Below, piece by piece: positions 13,700 through 64,000 of a DNA stretch of 64,000 nt. The position numbers and the translations under genes are program-made. Positions within the stretch are counted from its first letter, which is position 1. The number at the start of each line of letters is the position of its first letter. Origin of the DNA: Xestospongia muta (lineage: Eukaryota; Porifera; Demospongiae; Haplosclerida; Petrosiidae); NCBI GenBank assembly GCA_963693285.1, contig OY848930.1, positions 4,464,001-4,528,000 of the forward strand, in the 5' to 3' direction. Under the pieces are notes generated by a model. It worked only from the letters and a program-made list of their open reading frames with translations. It was not told where the DNA came from and did not search any database.

Positions 13700-24448
<10,749 letters not shown>

Positions 24449-40171: not shown

Positions 40172-43100
40172 ATGAACGTTCCACTCTTACTTGGCTATAT
40201 TGCCTTGGCAATGGTAGTACTTGGAGCCAGCACTCCAGTCAATGGGTTTGATCATCAGATCTACGTGAGTTGTTCCTCTTCAGAAACTATTGGTAATGAT
40301 ACTTGTAGACCATCACATGATGGTTTACATTGTACTACACTTGACCAGGCTCTTAAAGAACTACAATACAATTCTACCGTTGTCTATATTAAGTCAGGTA
40401 TCTGTAGTCTAAGTAAAGAAGTGCATTTTCAATACAAAACTGATATAGCTATCATTGGTGATAATGATGGTGGCACTAATGTGGTTATAGAGTGTTCAGA
40501 TTATACTGGTCTTTCATTTTCTTATTCAAGTAACATCATACTGGAATCTCTTACATTACGTCAATGTGGTGCCTTTCAGAACAGCACTAGTAGAAACATA
40601 AGGAAGGATATAGTTTTTAAATACTTTTGTTTTACATCAGCTTTATATATGTTATTTTGTGCTAACGTTACTCTGATTGATGTACACTTACATCACTCCA
40701 ATGGTGTTGGTCTTGTTTTGTATAACACTGTGGGTAATGTGACTATTAAAGGTTGTGTTTTTTTTAATCAGAGTGATGCCTTTCCTAATCAAACAACAGT
40801 AGTTGGAGGAGGAGGACTTCAGATTGAGTTCTCGTATTGTATACCGGGTAATCTCAACTGTTTAAAAAGTGGCCATTCTCAAGTAGATAGTCAGTACTCA
40901 TCTGGTGCTTTTTATGTAATTACAGACTCCATTTTTAAATTGAATCAAGCCCATAGAGGTTCTGAATTTGTTTTCAAGTTGAGCAATGAGGAATCTAGTT
41001 ATTTTGCATTTGGTAAAGGGGGTGGGTTATCAATTATCTTAAAAGGTAATGCACATGGTAATAATTTCTTGATCAATAATTGTACTTTCTATAAAAACTA
41101 TGCTCATTATGGTGGAGGATTCTATGTTGCATTCCATGATCAATCTCGGGCTAATCGTGTATCAATTACTAATTGTAATATCACTGCTAATGAAAACTTT
41201 GATATACATTATAATGTCTTGGATTTTGACAGTGGTGGTGGCGGAGGTATGATTGTCTTTTTGTCTGGTACCAATGATACTAATGTCTTCCAAATACATG
41301 ACAGTACATTTCATGATAATGTGGGTCTCTCTGGTGGAGGACTAGCTGTAGAAGCTATAGCAAATTTTGAAAAACTCAATGGTTCATTAAGTTTAGATAA
41401 TCTTGTGTTTCAAAACAATTCAGCTTTTCTTGGTTCAGCTATTTACTTTTTTCAGGACAACAGTAATTGTCAATTCAAACTAGTGGTTAATATCAGCAAC
41501 AGTTCATTTATAAACAACTCACCAATCTGTTCTAAAAAGAAAGCTAGATCTTTTGCTAGTCTTGTTTGCTCTGGTATTGTCTACTCCAATGCACAAGACC
41601 TTCAACTAACTGGTGAACTATTATTTACAAACAACACTGCATCAGCTCTGGAAATTCGTTATTCAAGAGTCAATGTATTAGATGGTGCAAAACTAGTTTT
41701 TCAAAATAACACAAGTATTTATGGTGGAGGTCTAGCCTTGTATGAATGTAGCTTCATAGAGGTGTATCCTCAGACTCAGTTCATTTTTGACAATAATAGT
41801 GCTACTAAATATGGTGGGGCTATATATTCTGGTCCATGTGCCCAGTCTGCTCAATCATCAATATTATCAATGAAATGTTTTATATCATACTTCAACCGCT
41901 CAACAATTCCTGATGATTGGGATACTGAATTCAATTTCACTAATAATGTAATTAGAACAGACTCCTCAACTAATTCAGTGTATGCCAGCTCTATTACTTC
42001 TTGCTTGTGGCCAGATGGCTATGACACATTCAAAATTGACTACAACAGAACCTTTTGCTGGAATCCCTTCCATTATTATCCAGATAATTGTACTGATAGT
42101 ATAGACTCTGGTCCTGCATTTCTAAGCTACAGTAATAAAGGTTTTGTGATATTTCCTGGTCAAACTATCAATTCACCTGATGTTTATAATGGTTTTAAAC
42201 GTAAGATTAAGGATCCTCCTATTCAAGCTTGTATAAAATTTGGTTCAGCTTCTCTAGACAATTCTCAAATGAAAAAATGTATGAGGTTTCCATCAACAGG
42301 TGTACTCTATGTATACCAATACGGCAGCGGCGACTTTGTGACATCTGATATCATTTATTTGACTACTACAACAATAACACCAGAACATCTTCAGTCTACA
42401 TTTAAAATAACTTTCAAAAACTGTTCTTGGCCATTTCAATTTGATACCAAGCAGTGCTCATTTCTCTTACCTTATTTTTGTTGTTCTGACGGTTGTGGTG
42501 AACAATGTGGTATTGGATCAGTGATTCATCCAAATGAGCGTTACTGTATTTACTGTAACAATGATTTAGATTTAATTGTTGGTCGTTGTCCATTTGCTTA
42601 CAGTAACAAGCCAAAGTTTGTATTCAGTTACTCTAATAAGTCTTTTTCTGAACTGCAAGTTTGTGCCAATAATCGTACAGGCCCACTTTGTGGACAGTGT
42701 GAAAAAGATCTTGGTATTCCTATTAATTCTGTCTATTTTGAGTGTAAAGACTGTCATGGAAATATCATACTAAAAAGTTGGTTCATCTTTATATTACTAG
42801 AGCTGCTTCCATTGACAGTAATGGTGGTCATCATTTTGGTTTTCAATATCAGATTGACTGATGGATTTTTCGCTGGTCTTGTTTTGTATGCTCAAATCAT
42901 ATCAGTAGATTTCCAGGGTTGGTATTATCCAGCTTGGCTGACTGTACAGCAAGATACTTCATTTAAGGGAGACTATCTTACATACATTAGTACAAGTCCC
43001 TATAGTATTTTAAACTTAAACTTTTTGCGTATGCTTGGACCATCTTGGTCTAATCCAGTCTGTTTAACAAGTGACATGGGACCATTGGCTGTCTTTACAA

Positions 43101-44335
43101 CATGGTACTGTATAGCTTTTTATCCTTTTTTCTTACTGTTATTGCTATTAATATTGCAAACATTATATGACAATGGTTCCTTGTGTGTCTTTATTGTTTT
43201 TAAATGCATTCGCAAAATGCTAGCACGATTTCAACAATTCTTAAACATTCAGGCATCTTTGATGGAGTTTGCAGCATCAATATATGTGCTATCATTTACA
43301 CAGTTTGTTTCTTTATCTTATAAAATGTTACACTATAGTACTTGGCAAAGTATGACAAATGAGAATTTAAAGGGTAGAGTTTTCTTTTATGATGCTAGTT
43401 TAAACTATTTTGGGTGGCCTCATGCATTTTTTGGAATATTTGCATTCACCATTCTATTTTTCATTATATTATTACCAACTTTGTTCCTTAGTCTCTATCA
43501 ATTTAAATGGTTCCATCAATTTCTGACCCTTTGCAAATTGAGATACCAATTTCTAGTGTCTTTTGGTGATGTGTTTTCAGGATCTTTAAAGAATGGTACT
43601 GGTAATAGCAAACTTGACTTTCGTTCATTTGCTGGTTTCTATCTTGTCTTTCGAATCATTGCTATGCAATTTTATTATATAACAAGTGACCCAAAAATTG
43701 TCCTCTACTGTGAGACATGTTTATCACTTTTGTTTGCTGGTTTCATCATGATCTTCAGACCCTATAAAAAGAAAATTGTTAATTTTGCAGAGTTTACTGT
43801 ATTTTCCGTTTTGGGATTAATGAGTGCTATTTGTCTCTCTCAACGGCAAGGAGGAAGACATATTTGTGTGGTGGCCATTATGCATATACCCATTGTTCTA
43901 TTACTAGTCTACATTGTTTATAGGATTGTAACAAAAGTGTATCAACACTTTAAAAATTGTTGTCCTTTACAAGATGGAAATGATAACTGCTCTAATGAAG
44001 AGTTTCAAGACTCGATGACAATGGACACATTTCCAGATCGTGTTCTCAATCCCACTGAATACCAGGAGCGTCATGTTGGATTTGTCTCTTCTGAGTCTAC
44101 TCCATCTTCACTTAATAGTTCTCAGATTCATCTCCAGAATCCAGCTAGTGGTCATAGCAGTAATGATAGTCAAACAAATGACACCAGATTTGAAACCAGT
44201 TCCAGAACCACTGTACAAATTGGTAACACTGCTAAGACTAATACCACAAGTCGTACTACATTTCAGACCAGTATTAGATCCAGTGTTAGAAATACAACCA
44301 GTGATTATGGCAGTGCAAGAACTGATGATAGCTGA
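40172..44335 (+). CDS. Array gene A: PMP-repeat beta-helix, multi-pass membrane protein
   Basis: A single 1387-codon exon. Residues 1-27 are a signal peptide (LLLGYIALAMVVLGASTPVN). About 40-600 is an ectodomain rich in Asn-X-Ser/Thr with recurring beta-helix units: CTFYKNYAHYGGGFYV, DSTFHDNVGLSGGGLAV, LVFQNNSAFLGSAIYF, LVFQNNTSIYGGGLALY, FIFDNNSATKYGGAIYSG, matching the FxxN...GG[AIL] pattern of chlamydial PMP repeats. About 765-860 is Cys-rich (CCSDGCGEQCG, RTGPLCGQCEKDLGI, FECKDC). Hydrophobic segments start near 866, 898, 970, 1030, 1086, 1152, 1176, 1205 and 1231, with RPYKKKIVNFAEF between the seventh and eighth. The last about 135 residues form a Ser/Thr/Asn-rich cytoplasmic tail. Similar beta-helix, GPLCG.C and multi-TM layouts occur in protist proteins of unknown function. 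Inference: cell-surface receptor, adhesion or channel protein. AATAAA runs follow about 170 bases after the stop. Confidence 0.88.
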   Translation: MNVPLLLGYIALAMVVLGASTPVNGFDHQIYVSCSSSETIGNDTCRPSHDGLHCTTLDQALKELQYNSTVVYIKSGICSLSKEVHFQYKTDIAIIGDNDGGTNVVIECSDYTGLSFSYSSNIILESLTLRQCGAFQNSTSRNIRKDIVFKYFCFTSALYMLFCANVTLIDVHLHHSNGVGLVLYNTVGNVTIKGCVFFNQSDAFPNQTTVVGGGGLQIEFSYCIPGNLNCLKSGHSQVDSQYSSGAFYVITDSIFKLNQAHRGSEFVFKLSNEESSYFAFGKGGGLSIILKGNAHGNNFLINNCTFYKNYAHYGGGFYVAFHDQSRANRVSITNCNITANENFDIHYNVLDFDSGGGGGMIVFLSGTNDTNVFQIHDSTFHDNVGLSGGGLAVEAIANFEKLNGSLSLDNLVFQNNSAFLGSAIYFFQDNSNCQFKLVVNISNSSFINNSPICSKKKARSFASLVCSGIVYSNAQDLQLTGELLFTNNTASALEIRYSRVNVLDGAKLVFQNNTSIYGGGLALYECSFIEVYPQTQFIFDNNSATKYGGAIYSGPCAQSAQSSILSMKCFISYFNRSTIPDDWDTEFNFTNNVIRTDSSTNSVYASSITSCLWPDGYDTFKIDYNRTFCWNPFHYYPDNCTDSIDSGPAFLSYSNKGFVIFPGQTINSPDVYNGFKRKIKDPPIQACIKFGSASLDNSQMKKCMRFPSTGVLYVYQYGSGDFVTSDIIYLTTTTITPEHLQSTFKITFKNCSWPFQFDTKQCSFLLPYFCCSDGCGEQCGIGSVIHPNERYCIYCNNDLDLIVGRCPFAYSNKPKFVFSYSNKSFSELQVCANNRTGPLCGQCEKDLGIPINSVYFECKDCHGNIILKSWFIFILLELLPLTVMVVIILVFNIRLTDGFFAGLVLYAQIISVDFQGWYYPAWLTVQQDTSFKGDYLTYISTSPYSILNLNFLRMLGPSWSNPVCLTSDMGPLAVFTTWYCIAFYPFFLLLLLLILQTLYDNGSLCVFIVFKCIRKMLARFQQFLNIQASLMEFAASIYVLSFTQFVSLSYKMLHYSTWQSMTNENLKGRVFFYDASLNYFGWPHAFFGIFAFTILFFIILLPTLFLSLYQFKWFHQFLTLCKLRYQFLVSFGDVFSGSLKNGTGNSKLDFRSFAGFYLVFRIIAMQFYYITSDPKIVLYCETCLSLLFAGFIMIFRPYKKKIVNFAEFTVFSVLGLMSAICLSQRQGGRHICVVAIMHIPIVLLLVYIVYRIVTKVYQHFKNCCPLQDGNDNCSNEEFQDSMTMDTFPDRVLNPTEYQERHVGFVSSESTPSSLNSSQIHLQNPASGHSSNDSQTNDTRFETSSRTTVQIGNTAKTNTTSRTTFQTSIRSSVRNTTSDYGSARTDDS

Positions 44336-44756
44336 GTTAGTTTGTAATATATTACTGAAAACTACAATGATTGAGTGTAGTTTGTAATAACTCCTTTATT
44401 ATATCTTTGTAATGTATTTTTGTGTGCCTCATTTATAATTGATTTTCTCATCTTTCTTTAATAATTTTGTACACTTAACAAAAATAACAATAATGTATCA
44501 TTAAATAAATAAATTAAATAAAATTAAAATTACATCACAAGTGGTTTATTTGTACAAAAACAAATACTAAATATTTGTACTATACCAATGGTACCAGACA
44601 ATGGTCATGAAAGAGATATTACATATACACAAAATTTTAAAATATTGTTTTAGTGTTGTTAAGATCTGATATAAAATTATTAATAGTTATTTCAATAACA
44701 TACAATCAATCTATACAGTCAATGATGTCAGTAAAATTTGACTAATAGTACAGGTT

Positions 44757-44880
44757 CACTATTCTAGGTATCTAGTTTGGAGATTTTTAAAGAGATCATG
44801 TCCAGCTTCTAGTGGTCCACCCAGTATTGTACCATTGGGAGATTCTTGTTTTTCTTCAAGACAATACATGCATATCACTG
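44757..44880 (-). pseudogene. Tyrosine-kinase tail fragment in spacer A-B
   Basis: Homologous to the last exon of the kinase fragment at 50160, but keeps only the C-terminal tail (SPNGTILGGPLEAGHDLFKN-type codons). The homology breaks off after TTCTTCAAG, so the kinase part is deleted. Confidence 0.7.
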
Positions 44881-45099
44881 CAAAAAATGACTGGTTCACT
44901 GTAAAAATTGATTGGTTGAACTAACTAACACAGGGTTATACAGGTTGAATGTACAAAATGTAAAGTGTTGTCAGAGAACACATCCTGTGTACATCAATGC
45001 TCTAAAATACAGACAGACAGACTTTATTTTTAAATAGAAAACTTTATAATTTTTCATAATAATAAAATTATGTCACACCATTCTCCGCCCATTAATTAT

Positions 45100-45238
45100 T
45101 TCGTACTCATTGTAGTGGTATCTTGACTTTTTCTGACACAAGACTCTTAAACATTTGAACAGACACATAACTGCAAGCGTCCACTGTAATCTCAGTTCTG
45201 TATCGCTCGTGAGGCGACTTCAAGTAAATTACAGACAT
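45100..45238 (-). pseudogene. Dead copy of UBL7 exon 1 in spacer A-B
   Basis: Read on the minus strand from 45238: [17 protein letters not shown], as in UBL7 exon 1 (39832-39697), then substitutions (TVDACSYVS) and an indel near IPL that gives an in-frame TGA. It lies at the same position relative to gene B as the real exon does to gene A. Confidence 0.88.
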
Positions 45239-45565
45239 GTTTAATGTTACTGAAGAGAAAAATACTATTTCTTACGCTATTAGTGCTTATTCTGGTACTT
45301 CCATAATTAGATCTAAGCATATCTTTATGGTATTGATGCCAAAGCTTTCCTTTATAATACACAATGCGTTTCCTTCAATCATTATTATGATTCTGATTCG
45401 TCTCCTCCAGTAGCTACTATCCCAAGGAAAGATCACTTTTGAGTAAAAATTGTAGTAAATTGTTAGTAGTAACTTGATACTAATAACTCAATATCATTTT
45501 AATGATTATAATATTAACCTTTATTATATTATCCCTCATTGTCTTTAGGTTATTATCATATTAAA

Positions 45566-48500
45566 ATGAATGTTCCACTCTTACTTGGCTATATTGCCTT
45601 GGCAATGGTAGTACTTGGAGTCAGCATTCCAGTCAATGGGTTTAATCATCAGATCTACGTGAGTTGTTCCTCTTCAGAAACTATTGGTAATGATACTTGT
45701 AGACCATCACATGATGGTTTATATTGTACTACACTTGATCAGGCTTTTAAAGAACTACAACACAATTCTACTGTTGTCTATATTAAGTCAGGTATCTGTA
45801 GTCTAAGTAAAGAAGTGCATTTTCAATACAAAACTGACATAGCTATCATTGGTGATGATGATGGTGGCACTAATGTGGTTATAGAGTGTTCATATTTTGC
45901 TGGTCTTTCATTTTCTTATTCAAGTAACATCATACTGGAATCTCTTACATTACGTCAATGTGGTGCCTTTCAGAACAGCTCTAGTAGAAACATAAGGAAG
46001 GATATAGTTTTTAAATACTTTCGTTTTACATCAGCTTTATATATGCTATTTTGTGCTAACGTTACTCTGATTGATGTACACTTACATGACTCCAATGGTA
46101 TCGGTCTTGTTTTGTATAACACTGTGGGTAATGTGATTATTAAAGGTTGTGTTTTTTTTAATCAGAGTGATGCCTTTCCTAATCAAACAACAGTAGTTGG
46201 AGGAGGAGGACTTCAGATTGAGTTCTCGTATTGTATACCGGGTAATCTCAACTGTTTAAAAAGTGGCCATTCTCAAGTAGATAGTCAGTACTCATCTGGT
46301 GCTTTATATGTAATTACAGACTCCATTTTTAAATTGAATCAAGCCCATAGAGGTTCTGAATTTGTTTTCAAGTTGAGCAATGAGGAATCTAGTTATTTTG
46401 CATTTGGTAAAGGGGGTGGGTTATCTATTATCTTAAAAGGCAATGCACATAGCAATAATTTCTCAATCAGTAATTGTACTTTCCGTAAAAACCATGCTCA
46501 TTATGGTGGAGGATTCTATGTTGCATTCCATGATCAATCTCAGGCCAATAATGTATCAATTACTGATTGTAATATCATTGCTAATAAAAACTTTGATATA
46601 CATAATAATGTCTGGGATTTTGACAGTGGAGGAGGAGGAGGTATGATTGTCTTTTTGTCTGGTACCAATGATACTAATGTCTTCCAAATACATGACAGTA
46701 TATTTCATGATAATGTGGGTCTCTCTGGTGGAGGACTAGCTGTAGAAGCTATAGCAAATTTTGGAAAACTCAATGGTTTATTAAGTTTGGATAATCTTGT
46801 GTTTCAAAACAATTCAGCTTTTCGTGGTTCAGCTATTCACTTTTTTCAGGACAACAGTAATTGTCAATTCAAACTAGTGGTTAATATCAGCAACAGTTCA
46901 TTTATAAACAACTCACCAATCTGTTCCAAAAAGAAAGCTAGATCTTTTGCTAGTCTTGTTTGCTCTGGTATTGTCTACACTAACACACAAAACCTTCAAG
47001 TAACTGGTAAACTGTTTTTTGCGAACAACACTGCATCAGCTCTGGAAATTCGTTATTCAAGAGTCAATGTATGGGATGGTGCAAAACTAGTTTTTCAAAA
47101 TAACACAAGTATTTATGGTGGAGGTCTAGCCTTGTATGAATGTAGCTTCATAGAGGTGTATCCTCAGACTCAATTCATTTTTAACAATAATAGTGCTACT
47201 AAATATGGTGGGGCTATATATTCTGGTCCATGTGCCCAGTCTGCTCAATCATCAATATTATCAATGAAATGTTTTATATCATACTTCAACCACTCAACAA
47301 TTCCTAATGATTGGGATACTGAATTCAATTTCACTAATAATGTAATTAGATCTAGAACAGACTCCTCACCTAATTCAGTGTATGCTAGTTCTATTACTTC
47401 TTGCTTGTGGCCAGATGGCTATGACACATTTAAAGTTGACTACAACACAACCTTTTGTTGGAGTCCCTTCCATTATGATCCAGATAATTGTACTGATAAT
47501 ATAGACTCTGGTCCTGCATTTTTAAACTACAATAAGGAAAATTTTGTGATATATCCTGGTCAAACTATCTATTCACCTGTTGCTTATAATGGTTTCAAAC
47601 GTAAGATTGAACATCCTCATATTCAAGCTTGTATAAAATCTGGTCCAGCTTCTCTAGACAATTCTCAAATGAAAAAATGTATGAGGTTTCCATCAACAGG
47701 TGTACTCCATGTATACCAATATGACAGCAGTGACTTGGTGACATCTGATACCATTTATTTGACTACTACAACAGTAACACCAGAAAGTCTCCAGTCTACA
47801 CTTGAAATAACTTTCAAAAACTGTTCTTGGCCATTTCAATTTGATACCAAGCAGTGCTCATTTCTCTTACCTTCTATTTGTTGTTCTGACGGTTGTGGTA
47901 AACAATGTGGTATTGGATCAATGATTCATCCAGATGAGCGTTACTGTATTTACTATAACAATGATTTAGATTTAATTGTTGGTCATTGTCCATTTGCTTA
48001 CAGTAATAAGCCAAAGTTTGTATTCAGTTACTCTAATAAGTCTTTTTCTGAACTACAAGGTTGTGGCAATAATCGTACAGGCCCACTTTGTGGACAGTGT
48101 GATAAAGATCTTGGCATTCCTATTAATTCTGTCTATTTTGAATGTAAAGACTGTCAAGGGAACATTATACTCAAAAGTTGGTTCATCTTTATATTACTAG
48201 AACTACTTCCATTGACAGTAATGGTGATCATCATTTTGGTTTTCAATATCAGATTGACTGATGGATTTTTCGCTGGTCTTGTTTTGTATGCTCAAATCAT
48301 ATCAGTAGATTTCCAGGGTTGGTATTATCCAGCTTGGCTGACTGTACAGCAAGATACTTCATTTAAGGGAGACTATCTTACATACATTAGTACAAGTCCC
48401 TATAGTATTCTTAACTTGAATTTTTTGCGTATGCTTGGTCCATCTTGGTCTAATCCAGTCTGTTTAACAAGTGACATGGGACCATTGTCTGTCTTTACAA

Positions 48501-49735: not shown

Positions 49736-50159
49736 GTTAGTTTGTAATATATTACTGAAAACTACAATGATTGAGTGTAGTTTGTAATAACTCCTTTATT
49801 ATATCTTTGTAATGTACTTTTGTGTGCCTCATTTATAATTGATTTTCACATGTTTCTTCAATAATTTTGTACACTTAACAAAAATAACAATAATGTATCA
49901 TTAAATAAATTAATAAAATAAAATTGAAATTACATCACAAGTGGTTTATTTGTACAAAAAAAATAATAAATATTTGTACTACCAATGTGGTACCAGGCAA
50001 TGGTCAAGAAAGAGATATTGCATATACACATAACTTTTAAATATTGTTTTAGTGTTGTTAAGATCTGATATAAAATTATTAATAGTTATTTCAATAACAT
50101 ACACTCAATCCATGGATAGTCAATGATGGCAGTAAAATTTGACTAATAGTACAGGTTCA

Positions 50160-50930: not shown

Positions 50931-53900
50931 ATGAACGTTCCACTCTTACTTGGCTATATTGCCTTGGCAATGGTAGTACTTGGAGCCAGCACTCCAGTCA
51001 ATGGGTTTGATCATCAGATCTACGTGAGTTGTTCCTCTTCAGAAACTATTGGTAATGATACTTGTAGACCATCACATGATGGTTTACATTGTACTACACT
51101 TGACCAGGCTCTTAAAGAACTACAACACAATTCTACTGTTGTCTATATTAAGTCAGGTATCTGTAGTCTAAGTAAAGAAGTGCATTTTCAATACAAAACT
51201 GATATAGCTATCATTGGTGATGATGATGGTGACACTGATGTGGTTATAGAGTGTTCAGATTATACTGGTCTTTCATTTTCTTATTCAAGTAATATCATAC
51301 TGAAATCCCTTGCATTGTATAACTGTAGTGCTGTTCAGATAAGTACAAGTAGAAACATAAGCATTACAGTTTTTGAATACATTCACTTTACATCAGCTTT
51401 ATATATGCTATTTTGTGCTAACGTTACTCTGATTGATGTACACTTGTACAGATCCAAAGGTGTTAGTCTTGTTTTGTATAACACTGTGGGTAATGTGATT
51501 ATTAAAAGTTGTGTTTTTTAATCACAGTCACGCCTTTCCTCATAAACCAGTTGGTGGAGGAGGACTCCAGATTGAGTTCTCATACTGCATACCAGGCAAT
51601 ATCAACTGCCCAAACAGTGGTAATTCTCAAGTAAACAGTCAATATTCATCTGGTGCTTTTTATACAATTACAGACTCCATTTTTGAAAAGAACAGAGCAC
51701 TAGCACACAAAGCAGACAAACAGAGTTTTACATTTTTCAAGTTGAGCAATGAGGAATCTGGTTATTTTGCATTTGGTAAAGGTGGTGGGTTATCAATTAT
51801 CTTAAAAGGTAATGCACATGACAATAATTTCTTGATCAGTAATTGTACTTTCCATAAAAACTATGCTCATTATGGTGGAGGATTCTATGTTGCATTCCAT
51901 GATCAATCTCAAGCTAATAATGTATCAATTACTGATTGTAATATCACTGCTAATGAAAACTTTAATATTATACATAATAATATCTGGGATTTTGATAGTG
52001 GTGGTGGCGGAGGTATGATTGTCTTTTTGTCTGGTACCAATGATACTAATGTCTTCCAAATACATGACAGTACATTTCATGATAATGTGGGTCTCTCTGG
52101 TGGAGGACTAGCTGTAGAAGCTATAGCAAATTTTGAAAAACTCAATGGTTCATTAAGTTTGGATAATCTTGTGTTTCAAAACAATTCAGCTTTTCTTGGT
52201 TCAGCTATTTACTTTTTTCAGGACAACAATAATTGTCAATTCAAACTAGTGGTTAATATCAGCAACAGTTCATTTATAGACAACTCACCAATTTGTTCTA
52301 AAAAGAAAGCTATATTATTTGCTAGTCTTATTTGCTCTGGTATTGTCTACTCCAATGCACAAGACCTTCAAGTAACTGGTGAACTATTTTTTACAAACAA
52401 CACGGCATCAGCTCTGGAAATTCATTATTCAAGAGTCAATGTATCAGATGGTGGAAAACTAGTTTTTCAAAACAACACAAGTGTTTATGGTGGCGGTCTA
52501 GCTTTGTATGAATGTAGCTTCATAGAGGTGTATCCTCAAACTCAGTTCATTTTTGACAGTAATAGTGCTACTAAATATGGTGGGGCTATATACTCTGGTC
52601 TATGTGCCCAGTCTGCTCAATCATCAATATTATCAATGAAATGTTTTATATCATACTTCAACCGCTCAATAATTCCTGATGATTGGGATACTGAATTCAA
52701 TTTCACTAATAATGTATTTGGAACAGACTCCTCACCTAATTCAGTGTATGCTAGTTCTATTACTTCTTGCTTGTGGCCAGATGGCTATGACACATTTAAA
52801 GTTGACTACAACACAACCTTTTGTTGGAATCACTTCCATTATTATCCACATAATTGTACTGATAGTATAGACTCTGGTCCTGCATTTTTAAGTCACAGTA
52901 ATAAAAGTTTTGCGATATTTCCTGGTCAAGCTATCTATTCACCTGTCGTTTATAATGGTTTTAAACGTAAGATTAAGGATCCTCCTATTCAAGCTTGTAT
53001 AAAATCTGGTCCAGCTTCTCTAGACAATTCTCAAATGAAAAAATGTATGAGGTTTTCATCAACAGGTGTACTCCATGTATACCAATATGACAGCAGTGAC
53101 TTAGTGACATCTGATACCATTTATTTGACTACTACAACAGTAACACCAGAAAGTCTCCAGTCTACACTTGAAATAACTTTCAAAAACTGTTCTTGGCCAT
53201 TTCAATTTGATACCAAGCAGTGCTCATTTCTCTTACCTTCTATTTGTTGTTCTGATGGTTGTGGTAAACAATGTGGTATTGGATCAATGATTTATCCAGA
53301 TGAGCGTTACTGTATTTACTGTAACAATGATTTAGATTTAATTGTTGGTCATTGTCCATTTGCTTACAGTAACAATCCAAAGTTTGTATTCAGTTACTCT
53401 AATAAGTCTTTTTCTGAACTACAAGGTTGTGCCAATAATCGTACAGGCCCACTTTGTGGACAGTGTGAAAAAGGTCTTGGCATTCCTATTAATTCTGTCT
53501 ATTTTGAATGTAAAGACTGTCGAGGGAACATCATACTCAAAAGTTGGTTCATCTTTGTATTACTAGAGCTGCTTCCATTGACAGTAATGGTGGTCATCAT
53601 TTTGGTTTTCAATATCAGATTGACTGATGGATTTTTCGCTGGTCTTGTTTTGTATGCTCAAATCATATCAGTAGATTTCCAGGGTTGGTATTATCCAGCT
53701 TGGCTGACTGTACAGCGAGATACTTCATTTAAGAGAGACTATCTTACATACATTAGTACAAGTCCCTATAGTATTCTTAACTTTAATTTTTTGCGTATGC
53801 TTGGACCATCTTGGTCTATCCAGTCTGTTTAACAAGTGACATGGGACCAATGGCTGTCTTTACAACATGGTACTGTATAGCTTTTTATCCTTTTTTCTTA

Positions 53901-55090
53901 CTGTTATTGCTATTAGTATTGCAAACATTATATGACAATGGTTCCTCATGTGTCTTTATTGTTTTTAAACGCATTTGCAAAATGCTAGCACGATTTCGGC
54001 AATTCTTAAACATTCAGCCATCTTTGATGGAGTTTGCAGCATCAATATATGTGCTATCATTTACACAGTTCGTTTCTTTATCTTATAAAATGTTACATTT
54101 TAGTACATGGCAAAGTATGACAAATGAGAATTTAAAGGGTAGAGTTTTCTTTTATGATGCTAGTCTGAACTATTTTGGTTGGCCTCATGCATTTTTTGGA
54201 ATATTTGCATTCACCATTCTATTTTTCATTGTATTATTACCAACTTTGTTCCTTAGTCTCTATCAATTTAAATGGTTTCATCAATTTCTGACCCTTTGCA
54301 AATTGAGATACCAATTTTTAGTGTCTTTTGGTGATGTGTTTTCAGGTTCTTTAAAGAATGGTACAAACTTGACTTCCGTTCATTTGCTGGTTTCTATCTT
54401 GTCTTTCGAATCATTGCTATGACATTTTATTATATAACAAGTGACCCAAAAATTGTCCTCTACTGTGAGACATGTTTATCACTTTTGTTTGCTGGTTTCA
54501 TCATGATCTTCAGACCCTATAAGAAGAAAGTTGTCAATTTTGCAGAGTTTACTGTATTTTCCATTTTGGGATTAATGAGTGCTTTATGTCTTTCTCAAGG
54601 ACAAGAAGGAAGACACATTTGTGTGGTGGCCATTATGCATATACCCATTGTTCTATTACTAATCTACATTGTTTATAGGATTGTAACAAAAGTGTACCAA
54701 CACTATAAAAATCATCGCCCTTTACAAGATGGAAATGATAACTGCTCTAATGAAACGTTTCAAGACTCAACAACAACAGACACATTCCCAGATCGTGTTC
54801 TCAATCCCACTGAATATCGGGAACGTCATGTTGGATTCACTTCTTCTGAGTCTGCTCCATCTTCACTTAATAGTTCTCAGATTCATCTCCGGAATCCAGC
54901 TAGTGGTCATAGCAGTGATGATAGTCAAACAAATGACACCAGATTTGAAACCAGTTCCAGAACCACTGTACAAATTGGTAACACTGCCAAGGCTAATACC
55001 ACAAGTCGTACTACATTTCAGACCAGTATTAGATCCAGTGTTAGAAATACAACCAGTGATTATGGCAGTGTAAGAACTGATGATAGCTGA
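50931..55090 (+). pseudogene. Array gene C: frame-disrupted copy of the beta-helix multi-pass gene
   Basis: Homologous over its full length to A, B and D, but with three breaks: one extra T in a T-run at 51514-51519 (T6 here, T5 in D and E), one missing A at about 53816-53820 (TCTATCC against TCTAATCC in the others), and a 10-base deletion at about 54364 (GGTACAAAC against GGTACTGGTAATAGCAAAC). The first two could be sequencing errors; the 10-base deletion is hard to explain that way. Coding signal and flanks are otherwise preserved, so inactivation would be recent. ATG at 50931, stop at 55088-55090. The repeats, Cys module and hydrophobic segments are as described for A. Confidence 0.82.
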
Positions 55091-55571
55091 GTTAGTTTGT
55101 AATATATTACTGAAAACTACAATGATTGAATGTAGTTTGTAATAACTCTTTTATTATATCTTTGTAATGTATTTTTGTGTGCCTCATTTATAATTGATTG
55201 TATGTCATATGATTTAATTGATTTTTGTAAGCTTATCTATCAAAAATAATGATTTTCTTGTGTGTCTTCAAAAATTTTATATACTTGACAAAAATAATAA
55301 TAATGTATTATTAAATAATGAATTAAATAAAATTGAAATTACATCACAAGTGGTTTATTTGTACAAAACAACAAATAATAAATAGTTGTACTACCAATGT
55401 GGTACCAGACAATGGTCAAGAAAGAGATATTGCATATACACATAATTTTAAAATATTGTTTTAGTGTTGTTAAGATCTGATATAAAATTATTAATAGTTA
55501 TTTCAATAACATACACTCAATCCATGGATAGTCAATGATGTCAGTAAAATTTGACTAATAGTACAGGTTCA

Positions 55572-55914
55572 CTATTCTAGGTATCTAGTTTGTAGATTTT
55601 TGAAGAGATCATGTCCAGCTTCTAGTGGTCCACCCAGTATTGTACCATTTGGAGATTCTTGTTTTTTTTCCTCACTGAGTCCATGTTCTAAGAGTTGTTC
55701 TTTAGGTTGTGAGAGATATTGGAACATAGATATGAAAGATGGTCGCTTAGATGCTTCTGGATGTCTAATAGACGAACAGATGGATAAATAGATTGATGGT
55801 TGTATGAATAGACAGATACTTACCAACAATTTATCATTAGTTGATATATAAGACGTGGACAGCCAGGAGGAGAGGAGGAGGAAGACATTCTAATTCATCC
55901 ATTCGTTCAATATG
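55572..55914 (-). pseudogene. Tyrosine-kinase 3' end fragment in spacer C-D
   Basis: Same two exon remnants as at 50160-50496. The tail exon is open (KRPSFISMFQYLSQPKEQLL to TRYLE, stop at 55572). The C-lobe exon has a 5-base insertion in its CTCC-rich part (GAGGAGAGGAGGAGG on the plus strand), so its frame fails before YQLM. Confidence 0.78.
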
Positions 55915-56345
55915 CTATATAAATTAAAGAGTGTTGTAGTCATCCAGCTGTCTGCCTATTTATCTATTCATCAATCTATCCTTTAGTCTATCATTAAAAT
56001 TATCCTTATCAATAATATCTATAGATGCTATTGAAAAGAAAAATGCTATTTCTTATGCTAATTAGTGCTAATTATGGTATTTCAATAATTAGGTCTAACA
56101 TTTCTTTACGGTATTGATAAGCCACTTTCCCTCCTTGTTATTATAAATACTTTCATTGTTGTGACTGTATTGTATTACCTCCAGTAGCTACTATCTCAAG
56201 GAAAGGTCAAATTTGAGTAAGAAATTCTAGAAAATTGTTAGTAGTAATATTATTAATTACTAATAACTCAATATCATTTTAATGATTATAATATTGAGCT
56301 TTATTATATTATCCCTCATTGTCTTTAGGTTATTATCATATTAAA

Positions 56346-59300
56346 ATGAACATTCCACTCTTACTTGGCTATATTGCCTTGGCAATGGTAGTACTTGGAG
56401 CCAACACTCCAGTCAATGGGTTTGATCATCAGATCTATGTGAGTTGTTCTTCAGAAACTATTGGTAATGATACTTGTAGACCATCACATGATGGTTTACA
56501 TTGTACTACACTTGATCAGGCTCTTAAAGAACTACAACACAATTCTACTGTTGTCTATATTAAGTCAGGTATCTGTAGTCTAAGTAAAGAAGTGCATTTT
56601 CAATACAAAACTGATATAGCTATCATTGGTGATAATGATGGTGACACTGATGTGGTTATAGAGTGTTCAGATTATGCTGGTCTTTCATTTTCTTATTCAA
56701 GTAATATCATACTGGAATCCCTTGCGTTGTATCACTGTGGTGCTGTTCAGATAAGTACAAGTAGAAACATAAGCATTACAGTTTTTGAATACATTCACTT
56801 TACATCAGCTTTATATATGCTATTTTGTGCTAACGTTACTCTGATTGATGTACACTTGTACAGATCCAAAGGTGGTGGTCTTGTTTTGTATAACACTGTG
56901 GGTAATGTGATTATTGAAAGTTGTGTTTTTAACCATAGTCACGCCTTTCCGTATAAATCAGTTGGTGGAGGAGGACTCCAGATTGAGTTCTCATACTGCA
57001 TACCGGGCAATATTGAGTGCCGAGACAGTGGTAATTCTCAAGTAAACAGTCAATATTCATCTGGTGCTTTTTATACAATTACAGACTCCATTTTTGAAAA
57101 GAACAGAGCACTTTCCCCCATAGCACACAAACGGAGTTTTACATTTTTTAAGTTGAGCAATGAGAAATCGAATAATTTTGCATTTGGCAAAGGTGGTGGG
57201 TTATCAATTATCTTAAAAGGCAATGCACATGACAATAATTTCTTGATCAGTAATTGTACTTTCCATAAAAACTATGCTCATTATGGTGGAGGATTCTATG
57301 TTGCATTCCATGATCAATCTCAGGCTAATCATGTATCAATTACTAATTGTAATATCACTGCTAATGAAAACTTTGATATACATAATAATATCTGGGATGA
57401 TGATAATGGTGGCGGAGGTATGATTGTCTTTTTGTCTGGTACCAATGATACTAATGTCTTCCAAATACATGACAGTACATTTCATGATAATGTGGGTCTC
57501 TCTGGTGGAGGACTAGCTGTAGAAGCTATAGCAAATTTTGGAAAACTCAATGGTTCATTAAGTTTAGATAATCTTGTGTTTCAAAACAATTCAGCTTTTC
57601 TTGGTTCAGCTATTCACTTTTTTCAGGACAACAGTAATTGTCAATTCAAACTAGTGGTTAATATCAGCAACAGTTCATTTATAGACAACTCACCAATTTG
57701 TTCTAAAAAGAAAGCTATATTATTTGCTAGTCTTATTTGCTCTGGTATTGTCTACACTAATACACAAGACCTTCAAGTAACTGGTGAACTATTTTTTACA
57801 AACAACATGGCATCAGCTCTGGAAATTCATTATTCGAGAGTCAATGTATTAGATGGTGCAAAACTAGTTTTTCAAAACAACACAAGTATTTATGGTGGAG
57901 GTCTAGCCTTGTATGAATGTAGCTTCATAGAGGTACATCCTCAGACTCAGTTCATTTTTGACAGTAATAGTGCTACTACATATGGTGGGGCTATATACTC
58001 TGGTCCATGTGCCCAGTCTGCTCAATCATCAATATTATCAATGAAATGTTTTATATCATACTTCAACCGCTCAATAATTCCTGATGATTGGGATACTGAA
58101 TTCAATTTCACTAATAATGTAATTGGAACAGGCTCCTCACCTAATTCAGTGTATGCTAGTTCTATTACTTCTTGCTTGTGGCCAGATGGCTATGACACAT
58201 TTAAAGTTGACTACAACACAACCTTTTGTTGGAGTCCCTTCCATTATTATCCACATAATTGTACTGATAGTATAGACTCTGGTCCTGCATTTCTAAGTCA
58301 CAGTAATGAAAGTTTTGTGATATTTCCTGGTCAAGCTATCTATTCACCTGTCGTTTATAATGGTTTTAAACGTAAGATTAAGGATCCTCCTATTCAAGCT
58401 TGTATAAAATTTGGTTCAGCTTCTCTAGACAATTCTCAAATGAAAAAATGTATGAGGTTTTCATCAACAGGTGTACTCCATGTATACCAATATGACAGCA
58501 GTGACTTAGTGACATCTGATACCATTTATTTGACTACTACAACAGTAACACCAGAAAGTCTCCAGTCTACACTTGAAATAACTTTCAAAAACTGTTCTTG
58601 GCCATTTCAATTTGATACCAAGCAGTGCTCATTTCTCTTACCTTCTATTTGTTGTTCTGAAGGTTGTGGTGAACAATGTGGTATTGGATCAATGATTTAT
58701 CCAGATGAGCGTTACTGTATTTACTGTAAAAATGATTTAGATTTAATTGTTGGTCATTGTCCATTTGCTTACAGTAACAAGCCAAAGTTTGTATTCAGTT
58801 ACTCTAATAAGTCTTTTTCTGAACTACAAGTTTGTGCCAATAATCGTACAGGCCCACTTTGTGGACAGTGTGAAAAAGGTCTTGGCATTCCTATTAATTC
58901 TGTCTATTTTGAATGTAAAGACTGTCGAGGGAACATCATACTCAAAAGTTGGTTCATCTTTATATTACTAGAGCTGCTTCCATTGACAGTAATGGTGGTC
59001 ATCATTTTGGTTTTCAATATAAGATTGACTGATGGATTTTTCGCTGGTCTTGTTTTGTATGCTCAAATCATATCAGTAGATTTCCAGGGTTGGTATTATC
59101 CAGCTTGGCTGACTGTACAGCAAGATACTTCATTTAAGGGAGACTATCTTACATACATTAGTACAAGTCCCTATAGTATTTTTAACTTGAACTTTTTGCG
59201 TATGCTTGGTCCATCTTGGTCTAATCCAGTCTGTTTAACAAGTGACATGGGACCATTGGCTGTCTTTACAACATGGTACTGTATAGCTTTTTATCCTTTT

Positions 59301-60506
59301 TTCTTACTGTTATTGCTATTAATATTGCAAACATTATATGACAATGGTTCCTCATGTGTCTTTATTGTTTTTAAACGCTTTCGCAAAATGCTAGCACGAT
59401 TTCGGCAATTCTTAAACATTCAGCCATCATTGATGGAGTTTGCAGCATCAATATATGTGCTATTATTTACACAGTTCATTTCTTTATCTTATAAAATGTT
59501 ACATTTTAGTACATGGCAAAGTATGACAAATGAGAATTTAAAGGGTAGAGTTTTCTTTTATAATGCTAGTCTAACTTATTTTGGGTGGCCTCATGCATTT
59601 TTTGGAATATTTGCATTCACCATTTTATTTTTCATTATATTATTACCAACTTTGTTCCTTAGTCTCTATCAATTTAAATGGTTCCATCAATTTCTGACCC
59701 TTTGCAAATTGAGGTATCAATTTCTAGTGTCTTTTGGTGATGTGTTTTCAGGTTCTTTAAAGAATGGTACTGGTAATAGCAAAATTGACTTTCGTTCATT
59801 TGCTGGTTTCTATCTTGTCTTTCGAATCATTGCTATGACATTTTATTATATAACAAGTGACCCAAAAATTGTCCTCTACTGTGAGACATGTTTATCACTT
59901 TTGTTTGCTGGTTTCATCATGATCTTCAGACCCTATAAAAAGAAAATTATCAATTTTGCAGAGTTTACTGTATTTTCTGTTTTGGGATTAATGAGTGCTT
60001 TATGCCTTTCTCAAGGACAAGAAGGAAGACATATTTGTGTAGTGACCATTATGCATATACCCATTGTTCTTTTACTAATCTACATTGTTTATAGGATTGT
60101 AACAAAAGTGTACCAACACTATAAAAATCATCGCCCTTTACAAGATGGAAATGATAACTGCTCTAATGAAACATTTCAAGACTCAACAACAATAGAGAAA
60201 TTCCCAGATCGTGTTCTCAATCCCACTGAATATCAGGAACGTCATGTTGGATTCACTTCTTCTGAGTCTGCTCCATCTTCACTTAATAGTTCTCAGATTC
60301 ATCTCCGGAATCCAGCTAGTGGTCATAGCAGTGATGGTAGTCAAACAAATGACACCAGATTTGAAACCAGTTCCAGAACCACTGTACAAATTGGTAAGAC
60401 TGCTAAGACTAATACCACAAGTCGTACTACATTTCAGACCAGTATTAGATCCAGTGTTAGAAATACAACCAGTGATTATGGCAGTGCAAGAACTGATGAT
60501 AGCTGA
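56346..60506 (+). CDS. Array gene D: PMP-repeat beta-helix, multi-pass membrane protein
   Basis: An intact single exon of 1386 codons from the ATG at 56346. Same layout as A. The ectodomain belongs to the C/D/E type (SHAFPYKSVGGGGLQ, FEKNRALSPIAHKRSFTFFK). It lacks one Ser in the CSSETIG segment and carries a shortened DDDNGGGG loop where the others have DFDSGGGGG. It shares QGQEGRHICVV with C and FYNASLTYFGWPH with B. The tail ends SARTDDS. The conserved upstream block with TCTTTAGG is present 18 bases before the ATG. Confidence 0.88.
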   Translation: MNIPLLLGYIALAMVVLGANTPVNGFDHQIYVSCSSETIGNDTCRPSHDGLHCTTLDQALKELQHNSTVVYIKSGICSLSKEVHFQYKTDIAIIGDNDGDTDVVIECSDYAGLSFSYSSNIILESLALYHCGAVQISTSRNISITVFEYIHFTSALYMLFCANVTLIDVHLYRSKGGGLVLYNTVGNVIIESCVFNHSHAFPYKSVGGGGLQIEFSYCIPGNIECRDSGNSQVNSQYSSGAFYTITDSIFEKNRALSPIAHKRSFTFFKLSNEKSNNFAFGKGGGLSIILKGNAHDNNFLISNCTFHKNYAHYGGGFYVAFHDQSQANHVSITNCNITANENFDIHNNIWDDDNGGGGMIVFLSGTNDTNVFQIHDSTFHDNVGLSGGGLAVEAIANFGKLNGSLSLDNLVFQNNSAFLGSAIHFFQDNSNCQFKLVVNISNSSFIDNSPICSKKKAILFASLICSGIVYTNTQDLQVTGELFFTNNMASALEIHYSRVNVLDGAKLVFQNNTSIYGGGLALYECSFIEVHPQTQFIFDSNSATTYGGAIYSGPCAQSAQSSILSMKCFISYFNRSIIPDDWDTEFNFTNNVIGTGSSPNSVYASSITSCLWPDGYDTFKVDYNTTFCWSPFHYYPHNCTDSIDSGPAFLSHSNESFVIFPGQAIYSPVVYNGFKRKIKDPPIQACIKFGSASLDNSQMKKCMRFSSTGVLHVYQYDSSDLVTSDTIYLTTTTVTPESLQSTLEITFKNCSWPFQFDTKQCSFLLPSICCSEGCGEQCGIGSMIYPDERYCIYCKNDLDLIVGHCPFAYSNKPKFVFSYSNKSFSELQVCANNRTGPLCGQCEKGLGIPINSVYFECKDCRGNIILKSWFIFILLELLPLTVMVVIILVFNIRLTDGFFAGLVLYAQIISVDFQGWYYPAWLTVQQDTSFKGDYLTYISTSPYSIFNLNFLRMLGPSWSNPVCLTSDMGPLAVFTTWYCIAFYPFFLLLLLLILQTLYDNGSSCVFIVFKRFRKMLARFRQFLNIQPSLMEFAASIYVLLFTQFISLSYKMLHFSTWQSMTNENLKGRVFFYNASLTYFGWPHAFFGIFAFTILFFIILLPTLFLSLYQFKWFHQFLTLCKLRYQFLVSFGDVFSGSLKNGTGNSKIDFRSFAGFYLVFRIIAMTFYYITSDPKIVLYCETCLSLLFAGFIMIFRPYKKKIINFAEFTVFSVLGLMSALCLSQGQEGRHICVVTIMHIPIVLLLIYIVYRIVTKVYQHYKNHRPLQDGNDNCSNETFQDSTTIEKFPDRVLNPTEYQERHVGFTSSESAPSSLNSSQIHLRNPASGHSSDGSQTNDTRFETSSRTTVQIGKTAKTNTTSRTTFQTSIRSSVRNTTSDYGSARTDDS

Positions 60507-60976
60507 GTTAGTTTGTAATATATTACTAAAAACTACAATGATTGAATGTAGTTTGTAATAACTCCTTTATTATATCTTTGTAATGTATTTTTGTGTGCCT
60601 CATTTATAATTGATTGTATGTCATATGATTTAATTGATTTTTGTAAACTTATCTATCAAAAATAATGATTTTCTTGTGTGTCTTCAAAAATTTTATATAC
60701 TTAACAAAAATAATAATAATGTATTATTAAATAATGAATTAAATAAAATCGAAATTACATCACAAGAGGTTTATTTGTACAAAAAACAAATAATAAATAT
60801 TTGTACTACCAATGTGGTACCAGACAATGGTCAAGAAAGAGATATTGCATATACACATAATTTTAAAATATTGTTTTAGTGTTGTTAAGATCTGATATAA
60901 AATGTTATTTCAATAACATACAATCAATCTATACAGTCAATGATGTCAGTAAAATTTGACTAATAGTACAGGTTCA

Positions 60977-61319
60977 CTATTCTAGGTATCTAGTTTGGAG
61001 ATTTTTAAAGAGATCATCTCCAGCTTCTAGTAGTCTACCCAGTATTGTACCATTTGGAGATTTTTGTTTTTCTTCCTCACTGAGTCCATGTTCTAAGAGT
61101 TGTTCTTTAGGTTGTGAGAGATATTGGAACATAGATGTGAAAGATGTTCGCTTAGATGCCTCTTGATGTCTAATAGATGACGAGATGGATAAATAGATTG
61201 ACGGTTGTATGATTAGACAGATACTTACCAACAATTTATCATTAGTTGATATAGAAGATGTGGAGAGCCAGGAGGAGAGGAGGAGGAAGACATTCTCCTT
61301 CATCCATTTGTTTAATATG
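60977..61319 (-). pseudogene. Tyrosine-kinase 3' end fragment in spacer D-E
   Basis: Same remnants as at 55572-55914, including the same 5-base insertion in the C-lobe exon. The conserved RPSF is RTSF here. The tail again ends LFKNLQTRYLE with a stop at 60977. Confidence 0.78.
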
Positions 61320-61758
61320 CTATATAAATTAAGAGTGTTATAGTCATCCAACTGTCTGCCTATTTATCTATTTATCAATCTATCCTTTAGTCTATCATTA
61401 AATTATCCTTATCACTCTAGTATCTATGGATGCTATTGAAAAGAAAAGTGCTATTTCTTATGCTATTTAGTGCTAATTCCGGTATTTCCATAATTAGGTC
61501 TAACATTTCTTTACGGTATTGATAAGCCACTTTGCCTTCTTGTTATTATAAATACTTTCATTATAGTGGCGCTATTGTATAATCTCCAGTAGCTACTGTC
61601 TCAACTTTTCAAGGAAAGGTCAAATTTGAGTAAGAAATTGTAGAGAATTGTTAGTAGTAATATTATTAATTACTAATAATTCAATATCATTTTAATGATT
61701 ATAATATTGAGCTTTATTATATTATACCTCATTGTCTTTAGGTTATTATCATATTAAA

Positions 61759-64000
61759 ATGAATGTTCCACTCTTACTTGGCTATATTGCCTTGGCAATG
61801 GTAGTACTTGGAGCCAGCACTCCAGTCAATGGGTTTGATCATAAGATCTATGTGAGTTGTTCCTCTTCAGAAACTATTGGTAATGATACTTGTAGACCAT
61901 CACATGATGGTTTACATTGTACTACACTTGATCAGGCTCTTAAAGAACTACAACACAATTCTACTGTTGTCTATATTAAGTCAGGTATCTGTAGTCTAAA
62001 TAAAGAAGTGCATTTTCAATACAAAACTGATATAGCTATCATTGGTGATTATAAAGGTGACACTGATGTGGTTGTAGAGTGTTCAGATTATGCTGGTCTT
62101 TCATTTTCTTATTCAAATAATATCATATTGAAATCCCTTGGGTTATATCACTGTGGTGCTGTTCAGATAAGTACAAGTAGAAACATAAACATTACAGTTT
62201 TTGAATACATTCACTTTACATCAGCTTTATATATGCTATTTTGTGCTAATGTTACTCTGATTGATGTACACTTGTACAGATCCAAAGGTGTTGGTCTTGT
62301 TTTGTATAACACTGTGGGTAATATTATTATTAAAAGTTGTGTTTTTAATCATAGTCACGCCTCTCCATATAAACCAGTTGGTGGAGGAGGACTCCAGATT
62401 GAGTTCTCATACTGCATACCGGGCAATATTGAGTGCCCAAACAGTGGTAATTCTCAAGTAAATAGTCAATATTCATCTGGTGCTTTTTATACAGTTACAA
62501 ACTCCATTTTTGAAAAGAACAGAGCACTAGCACACAAAACACACAAACAGAGTTTTACATTTTTCAAGTTGAGCAACGAGAAATCGAATAATTTTGCGTT
62601 TGGTAAAGGTGGTGGGTTATCAATTATCTTAAAAGGCAATGCACATGACAATAATTTCTCTATCAGTAATTGTACTTTCCATAGAAACTATGCTCATTAT
62701 GGTGGAGGATTCTATGTTGCATTCCATGATCAATCTCGGGCCAATCGTGTATCAATTACTGATTGTAATATCACTGCTAATGAAAACTTTGATATACATA
62801 ATAATATCTGGGATTTTGATAGTGGAGGAGGAGGAGGTATGATTGTCTTTTTGTCTGGTACCAATGATACTAATGTCTTCCAAATACATGACAGTATATT
62901 TCATGATAATGTGGGTCTCTCTGGTGGAGGACTAGCTGTAGAAGCTATAGCAAATTTTGAAAAACTCAACGGTTCATTAAGTTTGGATAATCTTGTGTTT
63001 CAAAACAATTCAGCTTTTCTTGGTTCAGCTATTTACTTTTTTCAGGACAACAGTAATTGCCAATTCAAACTAGTGGTTAATATCAGCAACAGTTCATTTA
63101 TAAACAACTCACCAATCTGTTCCAAAAAGAAAGCTAGATCATTTGCTAGTCTTGTTTGCTCTGGTATTGTCTACTCCAATGCACAAGACCTTCAAGTAAC
63201 TGGTGAACTATTTTTTACAAACAACATGGCATCAGCTCTGGAAATTCGTTATTCAAGAGTCAATGTATTAGATAGTGCAAAACTAGTTTTTCAAAACAAC
63301 ACAAGTATTTATGGTGGAGGTCTAGCCTTGTATGAATGTAGCTTCATAGAGGTGTATCCTCAGACTCAGTTCATTTTTGACAATAATAGTGCTACTAAAT
63401 ATGGTGGGGCTATATACTCTGGTCTATGTCCCCAGTCTGCTCAATCATCAATATTATCAATGAAATGTTTTATATCATACTTCAACCGCTCAATAATTCC
63501 TAATGATTGGGATACTGAATTCAATTTCACTAATAATGTAATTAGAACAGACTCCTCACCTAATTCAGTGTATGCCAGCTCTATTACTTCTTGCTTGTGG
63601 CCAAACAGTTATAAAACATTTGAAGTTGACTACAACACAACCTTTTGTTGGAATCCCTTCCATTATGATCCAGATAATTGTACTGATAGTATAGACTCTG
63701 GTCCTGCATTTCTAAGCTACAGTGATAAAAGTTTTGCGATATTTCCTGGTCAAGCTATCTATTCACCTGATGCTTATAATGGTTTTAAACGTAAGATTAA
63801 GTATCCTCCTATTCAAGCTTGTATAGACTCTGGTCCAGCTTCTCTAGACAATTCTCGAATGAAGAAATGTATGAGGTTTCCATTAAAAGGTGTACTCCAT
63901 GTATACCAATATGACACCAGTGACTTAGTGACATCTGATACCATTTATTTGACTACTAAAACAGTAACACCAGAAAGTCTGCAATCTACATTTAAAATAA
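61759..64000 (+). CDS. Array gene E: beta-helix multi-pass gene, 3' truncated by window end
   Basis: Open from the ATG at 61759 to the last base (about 747 codons), covering the signal peptide, the full beta-helix repeat region and part of the membrane-proximal domain. No frame break was found. The ectodomain is of C/D type in the N-terminal third (SHASPYKPVGGGGLQ, FEKNRALAHKTHKQ) but A/B type at NNSPICSKKKARSFASLVCS and NVIRTDSS. It has private changes such as IGDYKGDTD and WPNSYKTFEVDY. It starts 5413 bases after gene D, keeping the array period. Confidence 0.85.
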   Translation, partial: MNVPLLLGYIALAMVVLGASTPVNGFDHKIYVSCSSSETIGNDTCRPSHDGLHCTTLDQALKELQHNSTVVYIKSGICSLNKEVHFQYKTDIAIIGDYKGDTDVVVECSDYAGLSFSYSNNIILKSLGLYHCGAVQISTSRNINITVFEYIHFTSALYMLFCANVTLIDVHLYRSKGVGLVLYNTVGNIIIKSCVFNHSHASPYKPVGGGGLQIEFSYCIPGNIECPNSGNSQVNSQYSSGAFYTVTNSIFEKNRALAHKTHKQSFTFFKLSNEKSNNFAFGKGGGLSIILKGNAHDNNFSISNCTFHRNYAHYGGGFYVAFHDQSRANRVSITDCNITANENFDIHNNIWDFDSGGGGGMIVFLSGTNDTNVFQIHDSIFHDNVGLSGGGLAVEAIANFEKLNGSLSLDNLVFQNNSAFLGSAIYFFQDNSNCQFKLVVNISNSSFINNSPICSKKKARSFASLVCSGIVYSNAQDLQVTGELFFTNNMASALEIRYSRVNVLDSAKLVFQNNTSIYGGGLALYECSFIEVYPQTQFIFDNNSATKYGGAIYSGLCPQSAQSSILSMKCFISYFNRSIIPNDWDTEFNFTNNVIRTDSSPNSVYASSITSCLWPNSYKTFEVDYNTTFCWNPFHYDPDNCTDSIDSGPAFLSYSDKSFAIFPGQAIYSPDAYNGFKRKIKYPPIQACIDSGPASLDNSRMKKCMRFPLKGVLHVYQYDTSDLVTSDTIYLTTKTVTPESLQSTFKI

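What the first reader, a model, noticed from the sequence alone, without database searches (positions are those of the whole stretch)
40172..64000. Tandem array of giant beta-helix, Cys-rich, multi-pass membrane proteins
Five head-to-tail single-exon genes, in a region where every other gene is split into many small exons, encode signal peptide, PMP-like beta-helix ectodomain with many glycosylation sites, Cys-rich module, eight or nine membrane segments and a Ser/Thr-rich tail. A large diversifying ectodomain on a conserved membrane and tail module is what a recognition or adhesion receptor family would look like. The beta-helix repeats (FxxN...GG[A/I/L]) resemble chlamydial PMP adhesins. The function is inference. 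Intronless coding may reflect retroposition or an origin by transfer from a protist or bacterium for the ectodomain.
Basis: partly seen in the sequence, partly recalled or inferred. Interest (0 to 1): 0.88.

Follow-up and report, generated by a model that had tools for sequence, protein, structure and literature searches.

The report
Huge beta-helix membrane receptor-like gene family
An animal chromosome, very likely a sponge's, carries head-to-tail single-exon genes for large cell-surface proteins with a rod-shaped outer part on nine membrane helices; they belong to a very large, unstudied family shared with corals and sea anemones that looks built to sense or grip things outside the cell.

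The parts
40172..44335 (+). copy 1, intact single-exon gene, 1387 aa
45566..49735 (+). copy 2, intact single-exon gene, 1389 aa
50931..55087 (+). copy 3, broken copy: overlapping open pieces with in-frame stops (pseudogene, or assembly error)
56346..60506 (+). copy 4, intact single-exon gene, 1386 aa
61759..64000 (+). copy 5, intact in the chromosome (1386 aa) but cut by the window end
40172..40243 (+). copy 1 signal peptide, about residues 1-24
   Evidence: hydropathy
40244..42001 (+). copy 1 right-handed beta-helix ectodomain, about residues 25-610 (residues spanned by a fifth or more of the VIA rows: 25-541)
   Evidence: AF2; Foldseek/VIA
42002..42763 (+). copy 1 membrane-proximal beta and Cys-rich module, about residues 611-864 (C831, C843, C858 conserved)
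42764..43921 (+). copy 1 nine-segment membrane domain, residues 865-1250
43922..44332 (+). copy 1 cytosolic Ser/Thr-rich tail, mostly disordered, with DRVLNPTEYQERH and terminal SDYGS motifs
40529..41002 (+). mosaic tract in the beta-helix (alignment codons about 120-282, copy 1 coordinates): 21% divergent between copies 1/2 and copies 4/5 against 5% outside

Best explanation
These are single-exon genes for cell-surface receptor-like proteins of an animal, by its relatives a sponge. A secreted, glycosylated right-handed beta-helix rod stands outside the cell, a Cys-rich stalk couples it to a nine-helix membrane domain (N-terminus out, C-terminus in), and a disordered tail with a conserved DR..NP..Y motif faces the cytosol. 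I propose that the beta-helix binds surface glycans or particles (microbes, food, or neighbouring cells), that binding or pull on the rod is passed through the stalk to the membrane domain, which acts as a TRP-like (Pkd2-like) cation channel or signalling core, and that the tail handles sorting or signalling. The repertoire grows by tandem duplication with sequence exchange between copies. Shown by computation: gene structure, domain layout, fold of the rod, number of membrane segments, family size, spread, mosaic tract. Inferred: ligand, coupling, channel activity, tail function.
Against: No expression, ligand or conductance data. Pfam TRP (PF06011) was not among the 25 of 30 families shown for 31 diverse members at E <= 10, not found for 44 members at E <= 0.1 nor in the genome search (whose controls were silent too). 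No PDB match for the membrane part at E <= 0.001. Purifying rather than diversifying evolution. A receptor family with many ligands would be expected to vary most in the helix, but in the window copies and in three of four other gene sets the membrane-proximal module has the higher dN or omega. Two sequons of copy 1 fall in loops that the nine-segment topology puts inside.
Confidence: 0.45

Rival explanations
1. Adhesion or self/non-self markers: the rod binds its like or glycans on other cells of the animal, and the nine-helix part is mainly an anchor that couples to the cytoskeleton through the tail motif.
For: Repertoire size, tandem arrays and mosaic exchange; the PfbA adhesin is among the fold matches.
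Against: A nine-helix domain conserved from sponges to corals is far more than an anchor needs; the short forms keep it and drop most of the rod.
Confidence: 0.2
2. Nine-helix TRP-like mechanosensitive channels in which the rod is a passive tether, without a ligand repertoire.
For: Pkd2-like layout; the top match in the viral-structure library is an annotated TRP channel of a giant virus (E 0.023, Foldseek probability 1.00), the second an uncharacterised giant-virus protein (E 0.075); one Amphimedon relative is named 'TRP C-terminal domain-containing'.
Against: More than 100 copies for one mechanical task is odd; the viral matches are weak (none at E <= 0.001; best TM-score 0.26/0.37); no PF06011 match seen.
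Confidence: 0.2
3. Membrane-tethered glycan-processing enzymes: the beta-helix cleaves or remodels polysaccharide.
For: Many of the closest folds are lyases, epimerases and glycosidases.
Against: The match is to the general fold at 6-17% identity; the catalytic site was not tested; most of the rod is dispensable in the short forms.
Confidence: 0.1
4. A tandem gene family under weak constraint (birth and death), largely without individual function.
For: One broken copy in the window; other stop-bearing copies; omega 0.43-0.68 over the whole gene.
Against: 65 of 68 long loci keep open frames of at least 1250 aa, and omega under 1 shows constraint, most of all in the membrane part of the window copies.
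Confidence: 0.05

Closest known systems
Chlamydial polymorphic membrane proteins (Pmp; Pfam Chlam_PMP, NCBIfam TIGR01376)
   Same: repeats of the FxxN / GG[AIL] kind that build a right-handed beta-helix facing outside
   Different: Pmp proteins are autotransporters with a C-terminal beta-barrel (recalled); here the C-terminal part is alpha-helical membrane segments and a cytosolic tail
Fission-yeast Pkd2 / fungal TRP-like proteins (Pfam PF06011)
   Same: outer N-terminal domain, nine-helix membrane domain, cytosolic tail (PMC11277609 passages)
   Different: outer domain is a beta-helix rather than a lipid-binding domain; no PF06011 match seen
Beta-helix polysaccharide lyases and epimerases, phage tailspikes, PfbA adhesin
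   Different: secreted, virion-borne or cell-wall-borne proteins without a nine-helix membrane domain (recalled); sequence identity 6-17% in the rows shown
Uncharacterised relatives in Amphimedon, Ephydatia, Dysidea, corals and Nematostella
   Same: same layout; a coral relative aligns over residues 10-1220 of copy 1
   Different: separate expansions; the anthozoan group forms one clade (100/100), and the one coral row tested lacks the DR..NP..Y tail motif
18-member putative novel sponge domain cluster of SECOM (PMC3386278, Table 3)
   Same: 2 of 18 proteins carry the pectin-lyase fold; may be an earlier glimpse of this family (section 11 read)
   Different: no membrane part, arrays or function described in that section; identity with this family not shown

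Membership tests
Chlamydial Pmp adhesins | Pmp repeat motif | tested here: met
   TIGR01376 24.5 bits, cut-off 15, copy 1; Pfam Chlam_PMP under its cut-off in the five window pieces scanned, over it at two own-genome paralogues (150 of 655 candidates scored), and matched by 26 of 31 diverse members at E <= 10
Chlamydial Pmp adhesins | C-terminal autotransporter beta-barrel | tested here: not met
   C-terminal half is alpha-helical; no autotransporter hit in Pfam
Right-handed beta-helix proteins | right-handed parallel beta-helix fold | tested here: met
Beta-helix polysaccharide lyases/hydrolases | catalytic residues in the groove | not tested
   no residue-level superposition was made
TRP-like channels (PF06011, Pkd2/FLC) | match to the PF06011 profile | tested here: not met
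   not among the 25 of 30 families shown for 31 diverse members at E <= 10 (HMMER filters drop most weak hits), not among the 9 families for 44 members at E <= 0.1; own genome 0 matches, but the 14 controls were silent too, so that search alone shows nothing
TRP-like channels (PF06011, Pkd2/FLC) | outer domain, nine membrane helices, cytosolic tail | tested here: met
   description of Pkd2 from PMC11277609 passages; segment 2 is short and the least certain
TRP-like channels (PF06011, Pkd2/FLC) | structural match of the membrane part | tested here: inconclusive
TRP-like channels (PF06011, Pkd2/FLC) | ion conduction | not testable with these tools
   needs electrophysiology
G-protein-coupled receptors | seven membrane helices and a GPCR profile | tested here: not met
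   nine segments; no GPCR family among the Pfam families shown

The most novel reading that the evidence does not exclude
Sponges and anthozoans carry an unrecognised recognition system: more than a hundred mostly single-exon, tandemly amplified nine-helix channels, each opened by its own beta-helix rod, diversified by tandem duplication and sequence exchange, and used to tell microbes, food or other individuals apart; a pre-bilaterian counterpart of olfactory or innate immune receptor repertoires.
Probability: 0.25. Interest if true: 0.92.

Novelty: new variant of a known kind. Interest (0 to 1): 0.74.

Why it matters
How sponges and corals tell microbes, food and neighbours apart without adaptive immunity or, in sponges, neurons is open. 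This family has at least 121 loci in one genome, is shared by sponges and anthozoans, was not found described in nine paper searches, and has a layout (glycan-type beta-helix on a nine-helix membrane domain) that gives direct tests: surface localisation, glycan arrays with single ectodomains, and patch clamp. Single-exon frames make the genes easy to clone.

Tried and rejected
Transfer from bacteria: the rod search returned 116 proteins (only the 7991 candidates sharing most words were scored), mostly 1200-1450 aa, and the rows that name an organism are sponges and a coral; labels such as 'predicted outer membrane repeat protein' look automatic. No bacterial donor was seen, but no dedicated donor search was made, so an ancient transfer is not excluded. 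Recent retroposition: not supported, because the arrays are about 5.4-kb units whose spacers are alike too (74% for the first spacer against the other three, 93.5-95.3% among those three; the flank upstream of copy 1 only 52-64%, about what unrelated AT-rich DNA may give). An ancient intronless founder is not excluded.

Full report
OBSERVATION. Three complete ATG-to-stop frames of 1387, 1389 and 1386 aa and a fourth cut by the window end stand head to tail on the + strand from 40172. The fourth is complete in the chromosome, 1386 aa. The third unit of the array (50931-55087) is broken into overlapping pieces with in-frame stops. Outside the array no open frame is longer than 367 aa; that one is an SH2 plus tyrosine-kinase stretch, and another holds a PH domain. 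So the array lies among ordinary animal-type genes and is unlikely to be contamination. Starts are about 5.4 kb apart. The first spacer is 74% alike to the other three, and these are 93.5-95.3% alike among themselves: the array grew by tandem DNA duplication.

FAMILY SIZE. Copy 1 as query gives 35 matches in the own genome (34 of 718 candidates scored); two relatives as queries give 37 each (37 of 811, 37 of 782). After dropping the four pieces of the broken copy and merging overlaps there are 68 distinct long-form loci, 65 with open frames of at least 1250 aa (of the 37 rows I entered the six that were not plainly the same as; three of them were new). 59 of the 68 lie in nine groups of two or more with gaps under 30 kb, eight of these groups on one strand; the largest has 20 genes (C6:2.708-2.882 Mb). 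A short-form query adds 23 loci with open frames of at least 500 aa and no stop in the matched part, counted by hand from 67 rows (48 of 678 candidates scored), 21 of them on C2; stop-bearing or shorter pieces were left out, so this count says nothing about how many are intact. Only 7 of the 23 have frames of 858 aa or more; for the rest the N-terminal part is not in the same frame as matched and single-exon structure is not shown. A distant relative adds 30 loci, open frames 1102-2064 aa, none overlapping the former by eye, with only 30 of 1080 candidates scored. The sum, 121, is a lower bound. Of 27 loci read in full (5 of 32 fetched loci, fragments or repeats, left out), 24 have a start codon and hydrophobic N-terminus inside the same open frame; 3 (L021, L022, L023) do not.

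SPREAD. Homologues were found with the membrane half (105), the rod (116) and a coral membrane half (140, of which 120 listed); searches scored only the candidates sharing most words. Named ones are Amphimedon, Ephydatia (eukprot labels Em..., species recalled), Dysidea, Montipora, Oculina, Acropora, Stylophora, Orbicella, Desmophyllum and Nematostella; the names are 'uncharacterized', 'hypothetical' or 'predicted protein', or a domain name ('TRP C-terminal domain-containing', 'Right handed ...'). In a tree of 41 rows (last 720 residues) the nine rows of the anthozoan group (seven named, two not) form one clade (100/100); 15 own-genome rows are spread over several other clades. P0197, Dysidea P0207 and P0211 group with the anthozoans (100/98), on long branches whose place is unsure. 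The three short forms in the tree fall inside a 17-row clade that otherwise holds long forms (100/100; forks inside it partly open). Of five short forms compared with copy 1, all match the membrane part and three also the N-terminal cap, for example P0012 at 11-168 and 686-1352: the rod was mostly lost there and the membrane part kept.

EVOLUTION. Among the four intact copies whole-gene omega is 0.43-0.68; membrane part 0.20-0.45, helix 0.42-0.54, residues 611-865 0.63-1.05. In other gene sets mean omegas are helix 0.50, 0.54, 0.41; membrane-proximal 0.39, 0.68, 0.62; membrane 0.43, 0.53, 0.44 (six genes of C3 and C8, five of C6, four of C6), and for one C2 pair 0.23, 0.23, 0.31. So the ectodomain is not consistently the faster part and nothing shows robust positive selection. 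The membrane-proximal module has the highest dN in the first three sets, not in the C2 pair. Between copies 1/2 and 4/5 a tract at codons about 120-282 is 21% divergent against about 5% outside (scores 29-35; maximum of 500 shuffles 7.6-11.3), while 1 against 2 and 4 against 5 show no such tract. This is the mark of sequence exchange between paralogues inside the beta-helix, either import of a divergent stretch or evening-out of its flanks.

TAIL. The pattern DR..[NHR]P..Y is in 20 of 27 own loci and, with a slightly looser pattern, in 32 of 43 homologues; it is missing in distant branches, the one coral row included. A YG[ST] motif is in the tails of 14 of 27 own loci.

WHAT IT IS AND HOW IT MAY WORK. 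The layout (outer domain, nine helices, cytosolic tail) is that described for fission-yeast Pkd2, which passes Ca2+ when the membrane is stretched and whose tail is dispensable (PMC11277609, passages only). The membrane model's best viral-library match is a giant-virus protein annotated as a TRP channel, weak (E 0.023, TM-score 0.26/0.37), the second an uncharacterised giant-virus protein; one Amphimedon relative bears the name 'TRP C-terminal domain-containing'. Against this, no PF06011 match was seen (25 of 30 families shown, silent controls), and no PDB fold matches. I therefore say it may work like a Pkd2-type channel, not that it is a member. Many of the rod's fold neighbours act on or bind glycans, which makes glycans or microbial surfaces the likeliest ligands; this is inference.

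PRIOR KNOWLEDGE. Nine full-text searches found no description of the family (call numbers under Tried and rejected). A 2012 method paper lists an 18-member putative novel sponge domain, 2 of 18 with the pectin-lyase fold (PMC3386278, section 11 read); it may be a glimpse of this family.

Noticed in passing
window 10881-11981 (+): Open stretch with SH2 and tyrosine-kinase domains in a row (PF00017, PF07714): a tyrosine-kinase gene near the array.
   Followed up: partly
window 15520-15719: A run of 200 N, an assembly gap next to simple repeats.
   Followed up: no
window 13703-14371 (-): PH domain preceded by a long in-frame SIHPF-type simple-repeat translation; similar repeats recur at 18553-19158 and 37212-37730.
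   Followed up: no
G000 C2:10.76-11.21 Mb: Large cluster of short forms that lost most of the beta-helix but kept the nine-helix part; whether they have introns is not settled.
   Followed up: partly
G000 C6:2.708-2.882 Mb: Twenty long-form genes in a row on one strand, the largest run seen.
   Followed up: partly
G000 C6:7.03-8.45 Mb: More distant relatives with open frames up to 2064 aa and extra beta-helix repeats.
   Followed up: no
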